Part shown: positions 1,677 to 63,608 of the stretch, piece after piece
Position numbering within the stretch: position 1 is the stretch's first letter
How the letters are laid out: every line of letters begins with the position of its first letter
Origin: a virus
Reading direction: 5' to 3' (one strand)
IMG/VR virus record: IMGVR_UViG_3300025785_000013
Span: 19,478 to 83,477 of that record
DNA length: 64,000 bases
Notes under the pieces: generated by a model
The model's database searches: none
What the model saw: the letters and a program-made list of their open reading frames with translations, nothing else
Told to the model about the DNA's origin: nothing
Position numbers and translations under genes: made by a program

Positions 1677-1954
1677 ATTGCAGTTGGCTGGCCAAGCCTT
1701 GGTAATCAGGGGACTGCTACTCCCATACCTATCTGTATATGCCAAAATCACCATCCGATAGGCAATGGTTCTTTTTATACGGCTTCCAACCTTGTCACCC
1801 AAGGTAGGAAATTTTGGATGGTGACTTCCAAAGAACCGTAAGTGGCAACCTGTCTTCTGACAACGCTCGTGGCTTAATGCCCTTTTTACCGTCGCCACGC
1901 CGACGTGCTTCCAAACACAGTATACCAACCCCACTACAGGGTGTCAAGAGAAAT

Positions 1955-18921: not shown

Positions 18922-18927
18922 TAGGGT

Positions 18928-19074
18928 ATGAGCAACCTCACAGAAGAACAGCAAGCAGCGATGAACAGATTCGCTCAGGACTTTGCAGCAGTGCTTTTTC
19001 CCATTGTGCGTAGGAAGTACGAGCAAGACCTGAGCAACGGAGCCACCGAAGCCCAGACGATAGGAGAGCAATGA
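18928..19074 (+). CDS. Small hypothetical protein (48 aa)
   Basis: Begins six bases after the TAAACT box. Product MSNLTEEQQAAMNRFAQDFA, then AVLFPIVRRKYEQDL: a helical protein with an amphipathic middle. A conserved-looking promoter and an ATGA overlap with the next gene make it credible. No family known. Confidence 0.68.
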   Translation: MSNLTEEQQAAMNRFAQDFAAVLFPIVRRKYEQDLSNGATEAQTIGEQ

Positions 19075-41611: not shown

Positions 41612-41644
41612 CTTCGCTCCCTGTTTCGGTTGTCAATGAACTGT

Positions 41645-41781: not shown

Positions 41782-41845
41782 AAAGGTGCAGTACACGCTG
41801 GCTCGCCAGCACGTTCATTGACAACCTACCCAAGGGAGCAAGCAA

Positions 41846-44809: not shown

Positions 44810-45400
44810 ATGACCAGCCAAGACCAAAACCCATCCCCGAACGAATCCCCAACCGGAGCGTTCACCTACATCCCTGCGCCCCCTGCGAAGAAGTCGAACA
44901 ACACCATCAAGATTGTCGGCATCGTGGCAGCAGTCATCGTGATTCTCGCCATCATCGGCGCAGCATCCGGTGGTGGAAAGTCCAACAACGGTGGGAGCAG
45001 CAGTTCTAACTCCAACAGTGGAGCGACCAGCAACACGCAGTCCTACTCGTCGTGGAAGGCTGGCTTCTCCCCGGTGTGGAGCCAAGTGCAGGCCGACTGG
45101 AACAGCACCTCAACCGCCCTCGGCAACAACGACCAACTGACCGCTTCCAACGGTTTCTCGTCGCTCGGACAGGATGCAGCGCAGATTGCTCAGTACGAGA
45201 ACTCGCCTGACCCCACGCTCAACGCCGACATTCAAACCTTGTCGGATGACCTGCAAACCGTCGCAGCCGATGGTGAAACTGCTTTGAGCAGCAACAGCAG
45301 TTCCGACTTCAATACCTTCGGGAACGACTGCACGACCTTCAAGGCTGACGAAGCGACGGTGGCGAACCAAATCACCACCGACAACAGTTCGCTCGCTTGA
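44810..45400 (+). CDS. Membrane-anchored extracytoplasmic protein (196 aa)
   Basis: A Pro-rich cytosolic N-terminus (30 residues), a single transmembrane helix (IKIVGIVAAVIVILAIIGAA), a Gly/Ser/Asn linker, and a helical outer domain (SYSSWKAGFSPVWSQVQADW ...) with one Cys late. Strong consensus promoter and AAGGAG site; flanked by a terminator, so it is a monocistronic early gene. The plan suits a superinfection-exclusion or envelope protein, but it also resembles host-type membrane proteins; role not determined. Confidence 0.7.
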   Translation: MTSQDQNPSPNESPTGAFTYIPAPPAKKSNNTIKIVGIVAAVIVILAIIGAASGGGKSNNGGSSSSNSNSGATSNTQSYSSWKAGFSPVWSQVQADWNSTSTALGNNDQLTASNGFSSLGQDAAQIAQYENSPDPTLNADIQTLSDDLQTVAADGETALSSNSSSDFNTFGNDCTTFKADEATVANQITTDNSSLA

Positions 45401-45704: not shown

Positions 45705-46201
45705 GCGACAAGAAGCGTTGCCGTAAGTGCAACGAGTGGAAGCCCCTGAGCGACTTCACGGAGCGCAGAGACAGGCCGGGAGCCTATTCACCAGCCTGTA
45801 GAGCCTGCGACGGAGCCAAGAAGCGCAGCCAAGCAAATCGGTGGCAGGCAACCCAGCGAGAATCAGCAGTCAAGGCTTCCAAAGTGATGAAGCGCACACC
45901 ACTGAAGCCAGTGAGCGACCATCGCCGTGAGGTCAACGTCGAACGCAAGAAGCGAATGGTGGAAAAGTTTGGCGACCCCCGGACTTGGGAGTGTCGGTTC
46001 TTTGAGTACGCTCCACCGAACGCTGGACTTCCAAAATGCTTCGGTGAAATCCACGGCCACGAACTTCTGAGCCGGGCCAAGGCAGGGCGCACCGACGAGA
46101 ACATCTTGAATATGGAGAACGTCATCACCTTGTGTGACTTCCACAACGGATGGGTCGAAGACAACCCCTTGCTCGCCAAGCAGTACGGCCTAAAACTTTA
46201 G
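45701..46201 (+). CDS. HNH endonuclease (166 aa)
   Basis: GTG 45701 overlaps the preceding stop. An N-terminal zinc knuckle (CRKCNEWKPLSDFTERRDRP, then CRACDGAKKR) typical of phage HNH proteins, a basic middle, and a C-terminal HNH core (EIHGHELLSRAKAG, ENVITLCDFHNGWVEDNP) with catalytic His and C-x-x-H-N. Could be a homing or a packaging-type HNH; position away from terminase favours a free-standing homing or DNA-processing enzyme. Confidence 0.82.
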   Translation: MSDKKRCRKCNEWKPLSDFTERRDRPGAYSPACRACDGAKKRSQANRWQATQRESAVKASKVMKRTPLKPVSDHRREVNVERKKRMVEKFGDPRTWECRFFEYAPPNAGLPKCFGEIHGHELLSRAKAGRTDENILNMENVITLCDFHNGWVEDNPLLAKQYGLKL

Positions 46202-46237
46202 GCTTCCAACATCACCAAAAAAAGTTTTGGAAATGAC

Positions 46238-46266
46238 TTGACTTTGTGACACCGGTACTGTACACT
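46238..46266 (+). promoter_or_regulatory. Promoter of the structured RNA
   Basis: TTGACT (46238-46243), 17 bp, TACACT (46261-46266). Start of transcription expected at about 46273. No start codon or ribosome site follows. Confidence 0.78.
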
Positions 46267-46272
46267 GGTTTA

Positions 46273-46767
46273 TGTAGGGCGAAGTTGGTTCTACGGAGTT
46301 CCTTGAAAACCGATTTGTAGTTTCTAGGGGGTGTGCGGTAGGCCTTGTTGCTTCGGCTAGCACAAACCCAACGTTTGCTTACTCGCACCTCGCCTAGAGA
46401 TTACAAGTCACCATTCGATGGGTGTGGAGAACCACTTTGGGCAACGGGCTTCTAAGGCACCGTTGTGAGGTGGGGCTACCGCTTAGAACGGGAAATCCCA
46501 ATTTGAGTTCTACGCCAAAGAGTGACGAGCGCGAGCAGGCTGGCAGGCTGGGCTTACCCTTCCACTTGGACGCGTGTGGGCGAGCAGGGTGGTTCTGCCA
46601 GACTTATCGAATGAAACCGAGAACTGCGGTGCCATTATCCGGTGCTGTCATACGGGGCGAACCAGCAACATCGGGGAGAACTAAGCAGGCAGACTAAACC
46701 TTCGGGGCTGGGTAGTGAGAGCAGTAAAGCGACGAGCCTCACCTTTGGGTGGGGCTTTCGCCATTTT
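46273..46767 (+). ncRNA. Large structured non-coding RNA (about 490 nt)
   Basis: No credible reading frame; flanked by a consensus promoter and a terminator hairpin. Many paired elements are visible: a long helix joining TTGTAGTTTCTAGG (46315-46328) to CCTAGAGATTACAA (46393-46406), with a GTGCG-GTAG/CTTAC-CGCAC helix and a UUCG-capped hairpin inside it; CAACGG/CCGTTG (about 46442-46464) within ACCAC/GGTGG; TAGAAC/GTTCTA (about 46485-46512) around GGGAAATCCC; CTGGCAG/CTGCCAG (about 46539-46600) around ACCCT/AGGGT and CCAC/GTGG. Size and complexity are like GOLLD or ROOL phage RNAs, but I cannot assign a class. It is not tmRNA, RNase P or tRNA by motif. Confidence 0.72.
46736..46767 (+). terminator. 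Terminator of the structured RNA
   Basis: GCCTCACC-TTTG-GGTGGGGC (8-bp stem with one G-U pair), followed by TTTCGCCATTTT. Confidence 0.65.
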
Positions 46768-46792
46768 CCAAACTCGGCTGTAGCATTTTGGT

Positions 46793-56004: not shown

Positions 56005-58956
56005 ATGCCGACAAGTGAGTTGCTAGCCAAGGCTGTCCAGTATCTCGCTGCCAACTGCGATGGTGCGGTTCAGCAAGATGCCAAGGGGTTCAATGGCCCC
56101 GACAGTCGGTTCGGTAAGGCACTCGCAGCAATCTCCCCTGAAGCGTGGAGCGAAGGTTCCCAGCGTGAAGCGTGGGAGATGCTTTCCAAGTACCGAGGCC
56201 AACTTGCTAGTGGTGGAATTGACTACGACGCTATTCCTGAGCCGTCAAAGGTCAAGGGCCAGAAGTTTGTCCGTGCCGTTGACGTAAAGGCTGGCAAGAT
56301 TCTCGTCTTCCTGCCGTATGGTGATTCGGCGTATCCCAAGGGTGCGCTCAACGCTATGTGGAACCGTGAACTGCGAGGTTGGCAGGTTTCGGTCAGCAAG
56401 TACGGCTCGGTGCTGGACTGGGCGAAGCAGAACAACGTCCCGGTCACGGAGCGAGCCAAGGCGTTGCTGGAAAGTGCGCCCAAGCCAGAACACCCCGACT
56501 ACATCGGTAAGGCAGTATTCCGCAACGGCGAAATCGTGATGGCGTTTGACTACAACCCATCGCTCGTAGATGCTGTGCGCTCAATTCCGGGTCGTAGGTG
56601 GAATGGCGTAGACAAGACGTGGGTTGTCCCCAAGGAGACGGTCAGCATCGTTCGCAAACTGGCGAGCGACTACAACATTGAACTGTCCAAGGGCGTGTTG
56701 GAACTGCCTGAGGTAGAAATCACCACCGGGCCAAAGATTTCGGTTCAAGGCCGGGACTTCGCTATCTCGTTCACCTACGACGCTCAACTGCTCAGCGCAG
56801 TGCGCCAGATGCCGGGTTCGTCGTGGTCACCAGCATTACGGACTTGGGTTGTCCCCATCGAATCCGTAGACGAAGTGCTGAAATTCTCCAAGGAGTTTAA
56901 CGCTGCAATGTCCCCTGAGGCAGTGCGCCTCGTTGACGAAGCCAGCATCGTACAAGAAATCATTGAAGCCTCGGCTGCCAAAGATGCCCAAATCACCATC
57001 AAGGGATTCGGCAGTGAAACACTGCAACTGTTTCCGTTCCAACGTGCCGGGGTTGCCTATGCACTGCGAGCAATGGGATGGGAACACACCAGCGAAGGCG
57101 TGTGGGAGCGCACGAAGAACACCGGTGAAGGTGGGGTCATCGTTGGTGATGAAATGGGCCTCGGCAAGACCTGTCAGGGCCTTGGAATTTTGCAAGCCAC
57201 CCAATCGTTTCCAGCAGTCATTATCTGCCCGGCAAGCCTGAAATTCAACTGGGAGCGTGAAGCCCACAACTGGTTAGGAGAGGCCGGAACCGTCATCCTT
57301 GAAGGAACCACGAAGCCTAATCTCCGCCTGAGCCTGCCTCGCTCGGTCTTTCTTGATGAGCAAGTAAGGTTCCAACTTTTCAGAAAGATACAAGACATCA
57401 AGTTGACGAGCGACGACCCAACCGTATTGAGTTCGCTTCGTAGGGAAGCGCGGCTCCTTGACGAACGTGCGAACATAACTGCGACCACCAAAACTGGAAA
57501 GCCAGTCCATCAAACCCTTGTCAGTGTTGTAAACGACAATAGTCCAAGCCTTGCCGGATTTGGAAATGCTTCCCTCGCCATCAACGATTCCAGCGATGTA
57601 TCCGAGTTGGGCAATATCGTCCGGCAGGTTCAGGGTGCGACCCTCAAATCGCCTATTTCTCGGCTTGGGGTTGGCGAAGTTGTCCAGTCGCTTTTGGAAA
57701 GCAGCGACATTGTGGACGTATCCGGGGAAGTCCTTGACGATTTCGTTGATGTTGTCGCCTCGTTCTCGTCTGGCGACGGCGTTGGCGAGTTCATCAGTGC
57801 TGTATCTAATGCTCATCCCATCATTATAATCTGCAACTACGACATTCTGACCCACTGGGTAGAGCGTTTCACCTCAGTGAAGGGCATCGTGCTAGACGAG
57901 AGCCACTACGTCAAGAACGGCGCAGCCCAGCGTTCCAAGGCAGCCATCAAGTTGTCCGACAAAGTGGTGGAAAACGGCGTTCGTGTTTGCCTGTCCGGTA
58001 CGCCTATCGTCAACCAGCCGTTGGAACTGATGACCCAACTTCGCATCGTTCACCGACTGGATGACTTTGGTGGTGCATCGTCATTCCGCAACGTCTACGG
58101 CAGAGCCAGTGCGAAAAGCCTCGCATCCCTCAATCGCAAACTGCGCTCAATGTGTTATGTCCGGCGCAGGAAGGCTGACGTGCTGACCGAACTGCCACCA
58201 AAGCGTTGGAGCAGCGTGGTGGTGGAAGGCGACGCAGCCGTGATGAAGGAATACAAAAAGGCAGAAGCCGATATTGTGAAATACCTTTCACAACTTGCAA
58301 TGCAGTTTGCCTTGGAATCCGGGGCAAGTTCAGAGGAAGCCCGCAAAGAGGCGTGGATGAAGGCACTCCGAGCCAGAGCAGCAGAGCAACTGGTCGCAAT
58401 CAGCACCCTGAAGCAACTGGCAGCGAAGGCCAAGATGAAGGTCGCCAAGCAGTGGGTAGAAGACTTTCTCGCCAACGACAAGAAACTCGTGGTGTTCGGA
58501 TGGCATCGCACTGTGGTGGATGACATTGCCGTCAACTTCGCCAATGGGGTCAAGATTCAAGGTGGAATCTCGTCAGAGAAGCGTCAAGAAGCCGTTGACC
58601 TTTTCCAAAACTCCGACGAACAAAAAGTCATCGCTTGCAACATCAAAGCAGCCGGAGTGGGACTGACCCTCACGGCAGCGAGCGACGTGCTGTTCATCGA
58701 ACAGGGGTGGACACCGAGCGATATGGAGCAGGGCGCAGACCGTTGCCACCGTATCGGCCAGAAGGACAGCGTGACCGCTTGGCTAATGCTCACGGCAGAC
58801 ACGATTGACGAAGACATCGCAGCCCTGATTCAGCACAAACGCTCCATCGTGGACAGGGCTATTGACGGCACCGACGAAGATGAAGACGAGGAAGGCTCAA
58901 TCGTTGGTGATTTGCTTGTCAGCCTCGCAGAGCGTGGGTTGCAACAGACTAGTTAA
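56005..58956 (+). CDS. SNF2-family annealing helicase, SMARCAL1-like, with antisense insertion (983 aa)
   Basis: Two HARP-like repeats lie at about residues 165-310 (AFDYNPSLVDAVRSIPGRRW...KTWVVP and SFTYDAQLLSAVRQMPGSSW...RTWVVP). The SNF2 ATPase follows: GDEMGLGKT (about 380), CPASLKFNW, DESHY (about 631), SGTPIVNQPLEL, and the motif V-VI block GVGLTLTAASDVLFIEQGW...RCHRIGQ. HARP plus SNF2 is the annealing/fork-remodelling helicase plan. Residues about 437-603 match nothing expected; they correspond to a homing-endonuclease gene on the opposite strand, yet the frame stays open. Its start is leaderless. Confidence 0.85.
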   Translation: MPTSELLAKAVQYLAANCDGAVQQDAKGFNGPDSRFGKALAAISPEAWSEGSQREAWEMLSKYRGQLASGGIDYDAIPEPSKVKGQKFVRAVDVKAGKILVFLPYGDSAYPKGALNAMWNRELRGWQVSVSKYGSVLDWAKQNNVPVTERAKALLESAPKPEHPDYIGKAVFRNGEIVMAFDYNPSLVDAVRSIPGRRWNGVDKTWVVPKETVSIVRKLASDYNIELSKGVLELPEVEITTGPKISVQGRDFAISFTYDAQLLSAVRQMPGSSWSPALRTWVVPIESVDEVLKFSKEFNAAMSPEAVRLVDEASIVQEIIEASAAKDAQITIKGFGSETLQLFPFQRAGVAYALRAMGWEHTSEGVWERTKNTGEGGVIVGDEMGLGKTCQGLGILQATQSFPAVIICPASLKFNWEREAHNWLGEAGTVILEGTTKPNLRLSLPRSVFLDEQVRFQLFRKIQDIKLTSDDPTVLSSLRREARLLDERANITATTKTGKPVHQTLVSVVNDNSPSLAGFGNASLAINDSSDVSELGNIVRQVQGATLKSPISRLGVGEVVQSLLESSDIVDVSGEVLDDFVDVVASFSSGDGVGEFISAVSNAHPIIIICNYDILTHWVERFTSVKGIVLDESHYVKNGAAQRSKAAIKLSDKVVENGVRVCLSGTPIVNQPLELMTQLRIVHRLDDFGGASSFRNVYGRASAKSLASLNRKLRSMCYVRRRKADVLTELPPKRWSSVVVEGDAAVMKEYKKAEADIVKYLSQLAMQFALESGASSEEARKEAWMKALRARAAEQLVAISTLKQLAAKAKMKVAKQWVEDFLANDKKLVVFGWHRTVVDDIAVNFANGVKIQGGISSEKRQEAVDLFQNSDEQKVIACNIKAAGVGLTLTAASDVLFIEQGWTPSDMEQGADRCHRIGQKDSVTAWLMLTADTIDEDIAALIQHKRSIVDRAIDGTDEDEDEEGSIVGDLLVSLAERGLQQTS
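57274..57816 (-). CDS. LAGLIDADG homing endonuclease, antisense within the helicase gene (180 aa)
   Basis: LGYIAGIVDGEGSISKSGKA is a LAGLIDADG motif with the catalytic acidic residue (AGIVDGEG). WTIVVYNTDKGLMDWLSSFG, QYGWVVARQLDVLYLSEKLE and PYLLIKKDRARQAQAE continue the family pattern; the N-terminal 70 residues are a likely DNA-binding helix region (STDELANAVARRERGDNINE). TATAAT on the minus strand (57828-57823) lies six bases before the ATG at 57816. The stop is the complement of a helicase Leu codon TTA. Codons of the two genes are in register on opposite strands. Confidence 0.84.
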   Translation of the reverse strand: MSIRYSTDELANAVARRERGDNINEIVKDFPGYVHNVAAFQKRLDNFANPKPRNRRFEGRTLNLPDDIAQLGYIAGIVDGEGSISKSGKAWTIVVYNTDKGLMDWLSSFGGRSYVRTFVKEPRFPTKRTQYGWVVARQLDVLYLSEKLEPYLLIKKDRARQAQAEIRLRGSFKDDGSGLS

Positions 58957-62402: not shown

Positions 62403-63608
62403 ATGACCATCAACGTCAGTTCCGAAAATGTGGCTATTGACAGCATCAGCGTTCATCCGGCCAATCCTCGCCTCGGAGATGTGGCAGCCATCGCAGAATC
62501 ACTGGAGGTCAACGGCCAGTATTCACCAATCGTGGTTTGGAATGACACCATCATCGCCGGAACGCACACTTGGAAAGCAGCCAAGTCGTTAGGGTGGAAA
62601 ACCATCGCCATTACACGCTTCGACGGCAGCGAAGATGACGCACTTCGCATCCTCATCACCGACAATCGCACCAGCGACATCGCTTCTTACGACAATAGTT
62701 TGTTGCTAGATATGCTGAAATCACTGCCTGACCTTGAAGGAACGGGCTTTGAGTTGGCAGATTTGGATGAACTTGACGGCCTGCACAACTCCGAAGGTGG
62801 GGGTGTTTCACCAACGCTCCTAGACGAAGACCCGACAGACAACCTGAACCCACCAGTCAAAATCCAACTTGGTGATTTCTACGGGCAACTTGACCCCACG
62901 CTCCACGACCTTTGGCTCGCCAGCGTGAAAGATGAGGTGGGCGACAAGAAAGCATCCATCAACCGGGAACTTAAAAACCGACTTGACCTGCCAGAGGTTC
63001 CAAAAGTCCGAGTGGTGAAAGAGAAGAATTCTGCCGTCGAAGATGAGCAGAAGGTCACGATGGTGGAAACCGAACTCGTGCCACTGTCCGAACTCCGTCG
63101 CTTCCCCGGCAACCCACGAGAAGGGGACATCGGGGCCATCAGCGAAAGTTTGCGCGTCCTCGGCCAGTACCGGCCCATCGTGGTGAACCGGCGCACCAAC
63201 CAAATCCTGAAGGGCAACCACACGGCAGCCGCAGCATCAGCACTCGGTTGGAAGGAAATCGCCGTGGTGTGGGTGGACGTAAATGAAGTTGCAGCAACCA
63301 AAATCGTCGTGGCTGACAACAGAATATCCGACAAGGCAACCTACGACAACGACCTGCTAGTGAAATCGCTGGCGAAGTTGGACAGTTTGGAAGGTTCCGG
63401 CTTCGACCAAGAAGATGTTGCCGAACTTCGTGCAGGCAAGGATTCCACCAACCCAAAGGAATCCAAATCGAAGTTCAAGATTGGCGACTACGGATTTTCT
63501 GTCCCGGAGAGCATTTACCAATCGTGGGCATCAGACACCCTCGTGCCAGACGAAGCCCTGCACCGTCTCGGACTGCCGTTAACAGCACTGCTACGAGAGG
63601 CAAATTAA
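62403..63608 (+). CDS. Tandem ParB-like domain protein (401 aa)
   Basis: Two ParB/Srx-type domains. The first is at about 8-95 (ISVHPANPRLGDVAAIAESL, QYSPIVVWNDTIIAGTHTWK, ALRILITDNRTSDI). The second is at about 218-305 (LRRFPGNPREGDIGAISESL, QYRPIVVNRRTNQILKGNHT, ATKIVVADNRISDK). Each has the N-PR...I-x-x-S-x-x-x-x-G-Q-x-x-P-(I/V)-x-V and G-x-H-x-x-x-A-A motifs. Phage proteins of this class often accompany DNA methylases. TAGGCT (62391-62396) is six bases before ATG 62403. The 47 bp to the divergent tagged gene hold both promoters. Confidence 0.85.
   Translation: MTINVSSENVAIDSISVHPANPRLGDVAAIAESLEVNGQYSPIVVWNDTIIAGTHTWKAAKSLGWKTIAITRFDGSEDDALRILITDNRTSDIASYDNSLLLDMLKSLPDLEGTGFELADLDELDGLHNSEGGGVSPTLLDEDPTDNLNPPVKIQLGDFYGQLDPTLHDLWLASVKDEVGDKKASINRELKNRLDLPEVPKVRVVKEKNSAVEDEQKVTMVETELVPLSELRRFPGNPREGDIGAISESLRVLGQYRPIVVNRRTNQILKGNHTAAAASALGWKEIAVVWVDVNEVAATKIVVADNRISDKATYDNDLLVKSLAKLDSLEGSGFDQEDVAELRAGKDSTNPKESKSKFKIGDYGFSVPESIYQSWASDTLVPDEALHRLGLPLTALLREAN

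What the first reader, a model, noticed from the sequence alone, without database searches (positions are those of the whole stretch)
46202..46792. Large orphan structured RNA with its own promoter and terminator
About 490 nt between an HNH gene and a papain-fold gene have no credible reading frame. They have a consensus TTGACT-17-TACACT promoter, an intrinsic-type terminator, and many long-range and local helices, including a roughly 14-bp helix (with G-U pairs) between 46315-46328 and 46393-46406. Few phage RNAs are this large and ornate; GOLLD and ROOL are the known comparisons. I cannot match it to a class from memory, so it may be a divergent member or a new one.
Basis: partly seen in the sequence, partly recalled or inferred. 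Interest (0 to 1): 0.88.

Follow-up and report, generated by a model that had tools for sequence, protein, structure and literature searches.

The report
New modular phage RNA with rRNA-style leader
A virus of lake bacteria carries a roughly 490-letter RNA that codes for no protein, folds into a conserved shape, matches no catalogued RNA family and starts with the kind of signal bacteria normally use to make ribosomal RNA; what it does in infection is not yet known.

Summary
Between the HNH ORF and the next gene lies a strand-specific structured RNA (about 46273-46761). It has a TTGACT-17-TACACT promoter, whose region recurs elsewhere in this genome, and a strong 3' hairpin with a weak U-tract. 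No Rfam family matches. IMG/VR yields six variant types in related freshwater phages, and they support RNA function. A 3' core stem keeps all its pairs, one by a double change. A 61-nt loop inside that stem is unchanged in L004, L009, L010 and L012 (54 nt of it in truncated L025), while neighbouring genes differ by 18-26%. The 5' domain is modular: one variant lacks 301 nt cleanly, two carry a swapped helix tip, one has a structured insert elsewhere. Best reading: a new, narrowly distributed phage ncRNA family, probably trans-acting, probably using host Nus factors for synthesis and folding. GOLLD and ROOL membership is not met. Transcription, boxA use and function are inferred, not shown.

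The parts
46238..46266 (+). Promoter, TTGACT-17-TACACT (sigma-70/SigA type)
   Evidence: 55-nt promoter-region copy at 80% identity elsewhere in the genome; L009 has TTGACT-16-TATGAT at the same place
46274..46294 (+). P1, 5' hairpin of the leader (GUAGGGC/GUUCUAC; GUAAG...CUUAC in L009 and L010)
   Evidence: MFE; sequences; boxB-like position before boxA is inferred
46298..46311 (+). boxA-like element GUUCCUUGAAAACC (GUUCUUUGAAAACC in L004 and L009)
   Evidence: actinobacterial rrn leaders carry GAUCCUUGAGAAC, GAUUUUUGAGAAC and GUUGUUUGAGAAC about 150-200 nt before 16S
46312..46409 (+). P2 domain: 17-bp helix 46312-46328/46393-46409 with replaceable tip 46329-46392
   Evidence: 17/17 pairs here, 16/17 in L010/L004 with three double-sided and two compatible one-sided changes; tip replaced in L004 and L010
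46412..46613 (+). P3 domain: long closing helix and internal branches
   Evidence: against L010, 63 of 73 pairs unchanged, 7 changed but paired, 3 broken
46314..46614 (+). Segment absent as one clean block in L009/L011 (P2 plus P3 module)
   Evidence: blastn breakpoints 46313/46615 adjoin at one base of L009
46623..46725 (+). Conserved 3' core stem: outer helix 46623-46627/46721-46725 and P4 46633-46643/46707-46717; possible P5 46645-46649/46688-46692
   Evidence: 105 of 105 cells paired; one pair with a double change, six with one-sided compatible changes; model R1
46649..46709 (+). Invariant 61-nt loop enclosed by P4
   Evidence: identical in L004, L009, L010 and L012; its 3'-most 54 nt identical in L025; the near-identical L008 has one change in it
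46729..46761 (+). 3' hairpin, probable transcript end; U-poor tail
   Evidence: conserved in L012, different sequence but still a hairpin in L025
45701..46201 (+). Upstream HNH / endonuclease VII-like ORF
   Evidence: PHROGs; an HNH-type ORF precedes the RNA in window, L009, L012 and L025
46793..47353 (+). Downstream ORF; neighbour only, not adjacent to the RNA in L025

Best explanation
A phage-encoded noncoding RNA of about 490 nt, a new and narrowly distributed family. Host RNA polymerase starts at a SigA-type promoter (46238-46266). The first roughly 40 nt form a hairpin followed by a boxA-like element, the arrangement of rRNA operon leaders; inferred: it recruits NusB/S10 so that the untranslated RNA is completed and folded. 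Then come exchangeable 5' domains (P2, P3) and a conserved 3' core, a stem around an invariant 61-nt loop, which I take to be the active part. Transcription ends near the hairpin at 46761. Inferred: the RNA acts in trans, the loop binding a host or phage target; the 5' domains are accessory because variants lose or swap them. Shown: conservation, helix maintenance, modularity, absence from Rfam. Not shown: transcription, boxA use, target.
For: Strand-specific folding (against 90, 89). P2 compensatory changes. Core stem fully paired in all five aligned variants, with slid controls falling to 28-48%. The 61-nt loop is unchanged in L004, L009, L010 and L012 (54 nt in truncated L025) while HNH and downstream genes are 74-82% identical in the diverged variants. 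Against L012 the changes sit in the stem arms and flanks, none within core columns 32-92, which argues for selection rather than recent transfer. No coding signature. Promoter-region copy. boxA-like element in all four variants that keep the 5' leader and in actinobacterial rrn leaders. In L025 the RNA is followed by a different gene, so it is not a leader tied to one gene.
Against: No transcript data. Only about six distinct variants, so covariation is limited: for the core, 104 of 500 shuffles reach the observed score. The minimal RNA of L009 and the L025 fragment fold no better than shuffles. L012 and L025 lack the promoter and boxA. The boxA match was picked after the fact and the host is not identified.
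Confidence: 0.6

Rival explanations
1. Cis-acting leader or antitermination element: promoter, boxA and structured RNA modify RNA polymerase so that it reads through the 46729-46761 hairpin into downstream genes, like the lambda late leader or HK022 put sites.
For: boxA-like element, no promoter called between the hairpin and the next ORF, and a hairpin follows the core in every variant.
Against: The downstream gene differs (L025, L012), about 130 nt can be inserted between core and hairpin (L012), and two variants lack promoter and boxA. A 490-nt modular body is more than an antiterminator needs.
Confidence: 0.2
2. The conserved element is a 3' UTR or mobile RNA partner of the HNH gene (homing element, group I-like or omega-RNA-like relic).
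For: An HNH-type ORF precedes the core in window, L009, L012 and L025; the core adjoins truncated zinc-finger ORFs in L012 and L025.
Against: No group I, HEARO or other Rfam match; no flanking exon halves found; own promoter in window, L004 and L009; the HNH ORF is 166 aa with no IscB or TnpB match; L021 has a related HNH ORF and no RNA.
Confidence: 0.08
3. Replication-linked transcript, such as a primer or origin RNA, next to the replication module.
For: Replication initiator and helicase-loader genes lie about 2 kb upstream and similar ORFs precede the RNA in L025.
Against: No convincing iterons, no GC-skew switch at the site, 301 nt dispensable.
Confidence: 0.07
4. Remnant or overlapping protein gene; structure incidental.
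For: A frame at 46422-46697 stays open in L004 and L010.
Against: Substitutions ignore codon position, no family match, frame absent in L009, strand-specific folding and compensatory changes.
Confidence: 0.03

Closest known systems
GOLLD RNA
   Same: Large structured phage RNA of unknown function with a conserved 3' region and a variable 5' region (PMC12286853)
   Different: No CM match; no tRNA genes in the window or 10 related loci; about 490 nt against many over 800; core is one stem with a 61-nt loop
ROOL RNA
   Same: Large ornate phage/prophage RNA of unknown function (PMC12286853)
   Different: No CM match; 490 nt against 659 nt for the solved example; no tRNA island; [quoted passage not shown]
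Highly transcribed intergenic ncRNAs of cluster A mycobacteriophages and Rhodococcus phage WC1 (PMC10986025)
   Same: Abundant noncoding transcripts of unknown function in actinobacteriophages; the capsid protein here is closest to Microbacterium and Arthrobacter phages
   Different: No nucleotide match of this RNA in 50,697 phage records apart from 25 nt of the 3' hairpin in Curtobacterium phage Shrew
Bacterial rRNA operon leader (boxB-boxA-boxC)
   Same: Promoter, hairpin, then boxA-like element before a long untranslated structured RNA (order from PMC10250234)
   Different: Body is not rRNA; boxA function untested; boxC not identified

Membership tests
GOLLD | Match to Rfam covariance model | tested here: not met
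GOLLD | Location in or near tRNA arrays (often) | tested here: not met
   no tRNA in 64 kb or 10 related loci
GOLLD | Many members above 800 nt | tested here: not met
   about 490 nt from promoter to hairpin
GOLLD | Conserved 3' region, less conserved 5' region | tested here: met
   shared in kind only
GOLLD | 14-mer RNA cage | not testable with these tools
   needs cryo-EM
ROOL | Match to Rfam covariance model | tested here: not met
ROOL | Octameric RNA cage | not testable with these tools
   needs cryo-EM
Group I intron | Match to Rfam Intron_gpI model | tested here: not met
Group I intron | Paired P7 R and S elements | tested here: not met
   GCAGACUA is present but no UAGUC-type partner follows (inspection)
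HEARO / omega RNA | Match to Rfam model | tested here: not met
HEARO / omega RNA | Adjacent IscB, IsrB or TnpB nuclease | tested here: not met
   166-aa endonuclease VII-like ORF
tmRNA / tRNA | ARAGORN or Rfam match | tested here: not met
rrn-type boxA leader | boxA sequence near the 5' end, after a hairpin | tested here: met
   resemblance to rrn leaders of three actinobacterial genomes
rrn-type boxA leader | NusB/S10 binding and antitermination | not testable with these tools
   needs binding and reporter assays

The most novel reading that the evidence does not exclude
A phage RNA that borrows the host's ribosomal RNA production line: a hairpin-boxA leader recruits the Nus/S10 complex to transcribe and fold a modular RNA whose invariant 61-nt loop engages host machinery (ribosome assembly, RNA polymerase or Nus factors) in trans during infection.
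Probability: 0.15. Interest if true: 0.85.

Novelty: new variant of a known kind. Interest (0 to 1): 0.58.

Why it matters
Large phage RNAs such as GOLLD and ROOL are elaborate and unexplained. This is a further, unrelated family of the same kind. It offers two handles: a boxA-like leader that makes the question 'do phage ncRNAs recruit the host's rRNA transcription and folding machinery?' directly testable, and a naturally reduced variant (L009) in which a conserved core of about 110 nt survives without the large 5' domain.

Tried and rejected
Known RNA classes: cmscan at gathering and at E up to 10, on the window region and five homologous loci, gave only chance-level matches there.

Group I intron: considered because of CAGACUAAAC; rejected for lack of a partner S element and no CM match.

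Short peptide NCGAIIRCCHTGRTSNIGEN: conserved in frame in several variants, but L025 joins its upstream ORF in another frame and the block stays identical past the stop codon; no Pfam match.

Leader of the downstream gene: weakened because L025 has the RNA elsewhere.

Homologues in cellular genomes: a 25-mer found none; a 17-mer found 22 loci in unrelated bacteria, none scoring with the core model beyond chance; 395 genomes of the class of an Ornithinimicrobium gave none (no positive control, so weak).

More viral homologues: a pattern with the P5 strand left free gave four new contigs (L078-L081), judged chance. The alignment search with the downstream protein gave the same set of phages.

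Iterons near the RNA: none convincing.

Full report
What was checked. The window is positions 19478-83477 of an 83.5-kb IMG/VR virus record. The capsid protein is about 47% identical to those of Microbacterium and Arthrobacter phages, so an actinobacterial host is likely but unproven. Between the HNH ORF (stop at 46201) and the next ORF (46793) the sequence has a TTGACT-17-TACACT promoter at 46238-46266. A 55-nt stretch over this promoter recurs at 80% identity in front of another gene of the same genome, which supports it as a genuine phage promoter. The plus strand folds far better than shuffles (z -3.9 for the whole, -5.3 for 46308-46625); the minus strand does not (-0.85 and -1.9). The 3' hairpin 46729-46761 is strong, but the U-tract is weak and the terminator scan did not call it.

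Homologues. Protein and pattern scans of IMG/VR gave one small set of related phages. Distinct variants: the window type; L008 (99.7%); L004 and L010, which share a different tip on the P2 helix; L009/L011, which lack 46314-46614 as one block; L012/L034, which lack the 5' domain and promoter and carry about 130 nt between core and hairpin; and L025/L037, which keep 63 nt of the core in another gene neighbourhood. There is no match in 50,697 phage records or in the plasmid collection beyond 25 nt of the hairpin in Curtobacterium phage Shrew, and none in the genome collection by 25-mer.

Evidence that the RNA is the conserved thing. Against L009, L010, L012 and L025 the neighbouring HNH ORF and downstream ORF are 74-82% identical where they align, while the core is 90-98%. 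The 61-nt loop 46649-46709 is identical in L004, L009, L010 and L012, and its 3'-most 54 nt are identical in L025; L008 has a single change in it. One other gene (44810-45400) is 90% identical in L009, so mosaicism contributes. Against L012, changes fall in the stem arms and flanks and none in core columns 32-92. That pattern fits selection on a folded RNA better than recent transfer. The five rows of the core alignment keep all 21 pairs (105 of 105 cells); seven pairs vary, one of them by a double change (C-G to A-U in L012). Slid controls pair 28-48% of cells, but with so few sequences the shuffle control is not decisive (104 of 500). The P2 helix is 17 of 17 paired in the window and 16 of 17 in L010/L004, with three double-sided and two one-sided compatible changes. 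In P3, against L010, seven pairs change and stay paired and three break. Coding is disfavoured: substitutions are spread evenly over codon positions and L009 has no plus-strand frame.

Leader. Right after the 5' hairpin (46274-46294) comes GUUCCUUGAAAACC (46298-46311; GUUCUUUGAAAACC in L004 and L009). Three actinobacterial genomes carry GAUCCUUGAGAACUC, GAUUUUUGAGAACUC or GUUGUUUGAGAACUC about 150-200 nt before 16S rRNA, i.e. boxA. YTTGARAAC occurs once in the 64-kb window against 3.7 expected on both strands; chance placement within a 40-nt leader is about one in a thousand before allowing for post hoc choice. The further occurrences in related records that were looked at appear to lie inside genes. 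In E. coli rrn the order is boxB, boxA, boxC and boxA recruits the Nus complex (PMC10250234); [quoted passage not shown] For a long untranslated structured RNA both roles would make sense. This step is inference.

Interpretation. The anatomy is promoter, hairpin, boxA-like element, exchangeable P2/P3 domains, conserved core stem with invariant loop, end hairpin. I favour a discrete, trans-acting phage ncRNA. The main rival is a cis-acting antitermination leader; it is weakened because the following gene differs among variants and because two variants lack promoter and boxA. Membership in GOLLD or ROOL is not met. It resembles them in kind: phage-borne, large, function unknown, with a constant 3' and a variable 5' part as in GOLLD (PMC12286853). 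Actinobacteriophages are known to make abundant intergenic ncRNAs of unknown function (PMC10986025), to which no sequence link was found.

Limits. There are no transcript data, the homologues are few and closely related, the host is unknown, and boxA is identified by resemblance. The contigs are metagenomic assemblies; the L004 tip swap is supported by the independent L010 contig.

Noticed in passing
window 1844-1905, minus strand: Pistol self-cleaving ribozyme, 50.5 bits, well above Rfam's cut-off.
   Followed up: no
L002 1501-1555 (G000 18923-18977, minus): Second copy of the RNA's promoter region, 80% identical over 55 nt, in front of a small ORF: probably a shared class of phage promoter.
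   Followed up: partly
L012 4958-5128; L025 7495-7716 minus: A small zinc-finger-like ORF is fused at different points to the RNA core, suggesting recombination joined the core to the end of that gene twice.
   Followed up: partly
window 41628-41641 (-) and 41813-41826 (+): GTTCATTGACAACC in inverted orientation about 170 bp apart, possibly an operator or att-like site.
   Followed up: no
window 46218-46232: CCAAAAAAAGTTTTGG inverted repeat just upstream of the -35 box.
   Followed up: no
window 62403-63608 and 56005-58956: ParB-like partition protein and SNF2-type helicase.
   Followed up: no
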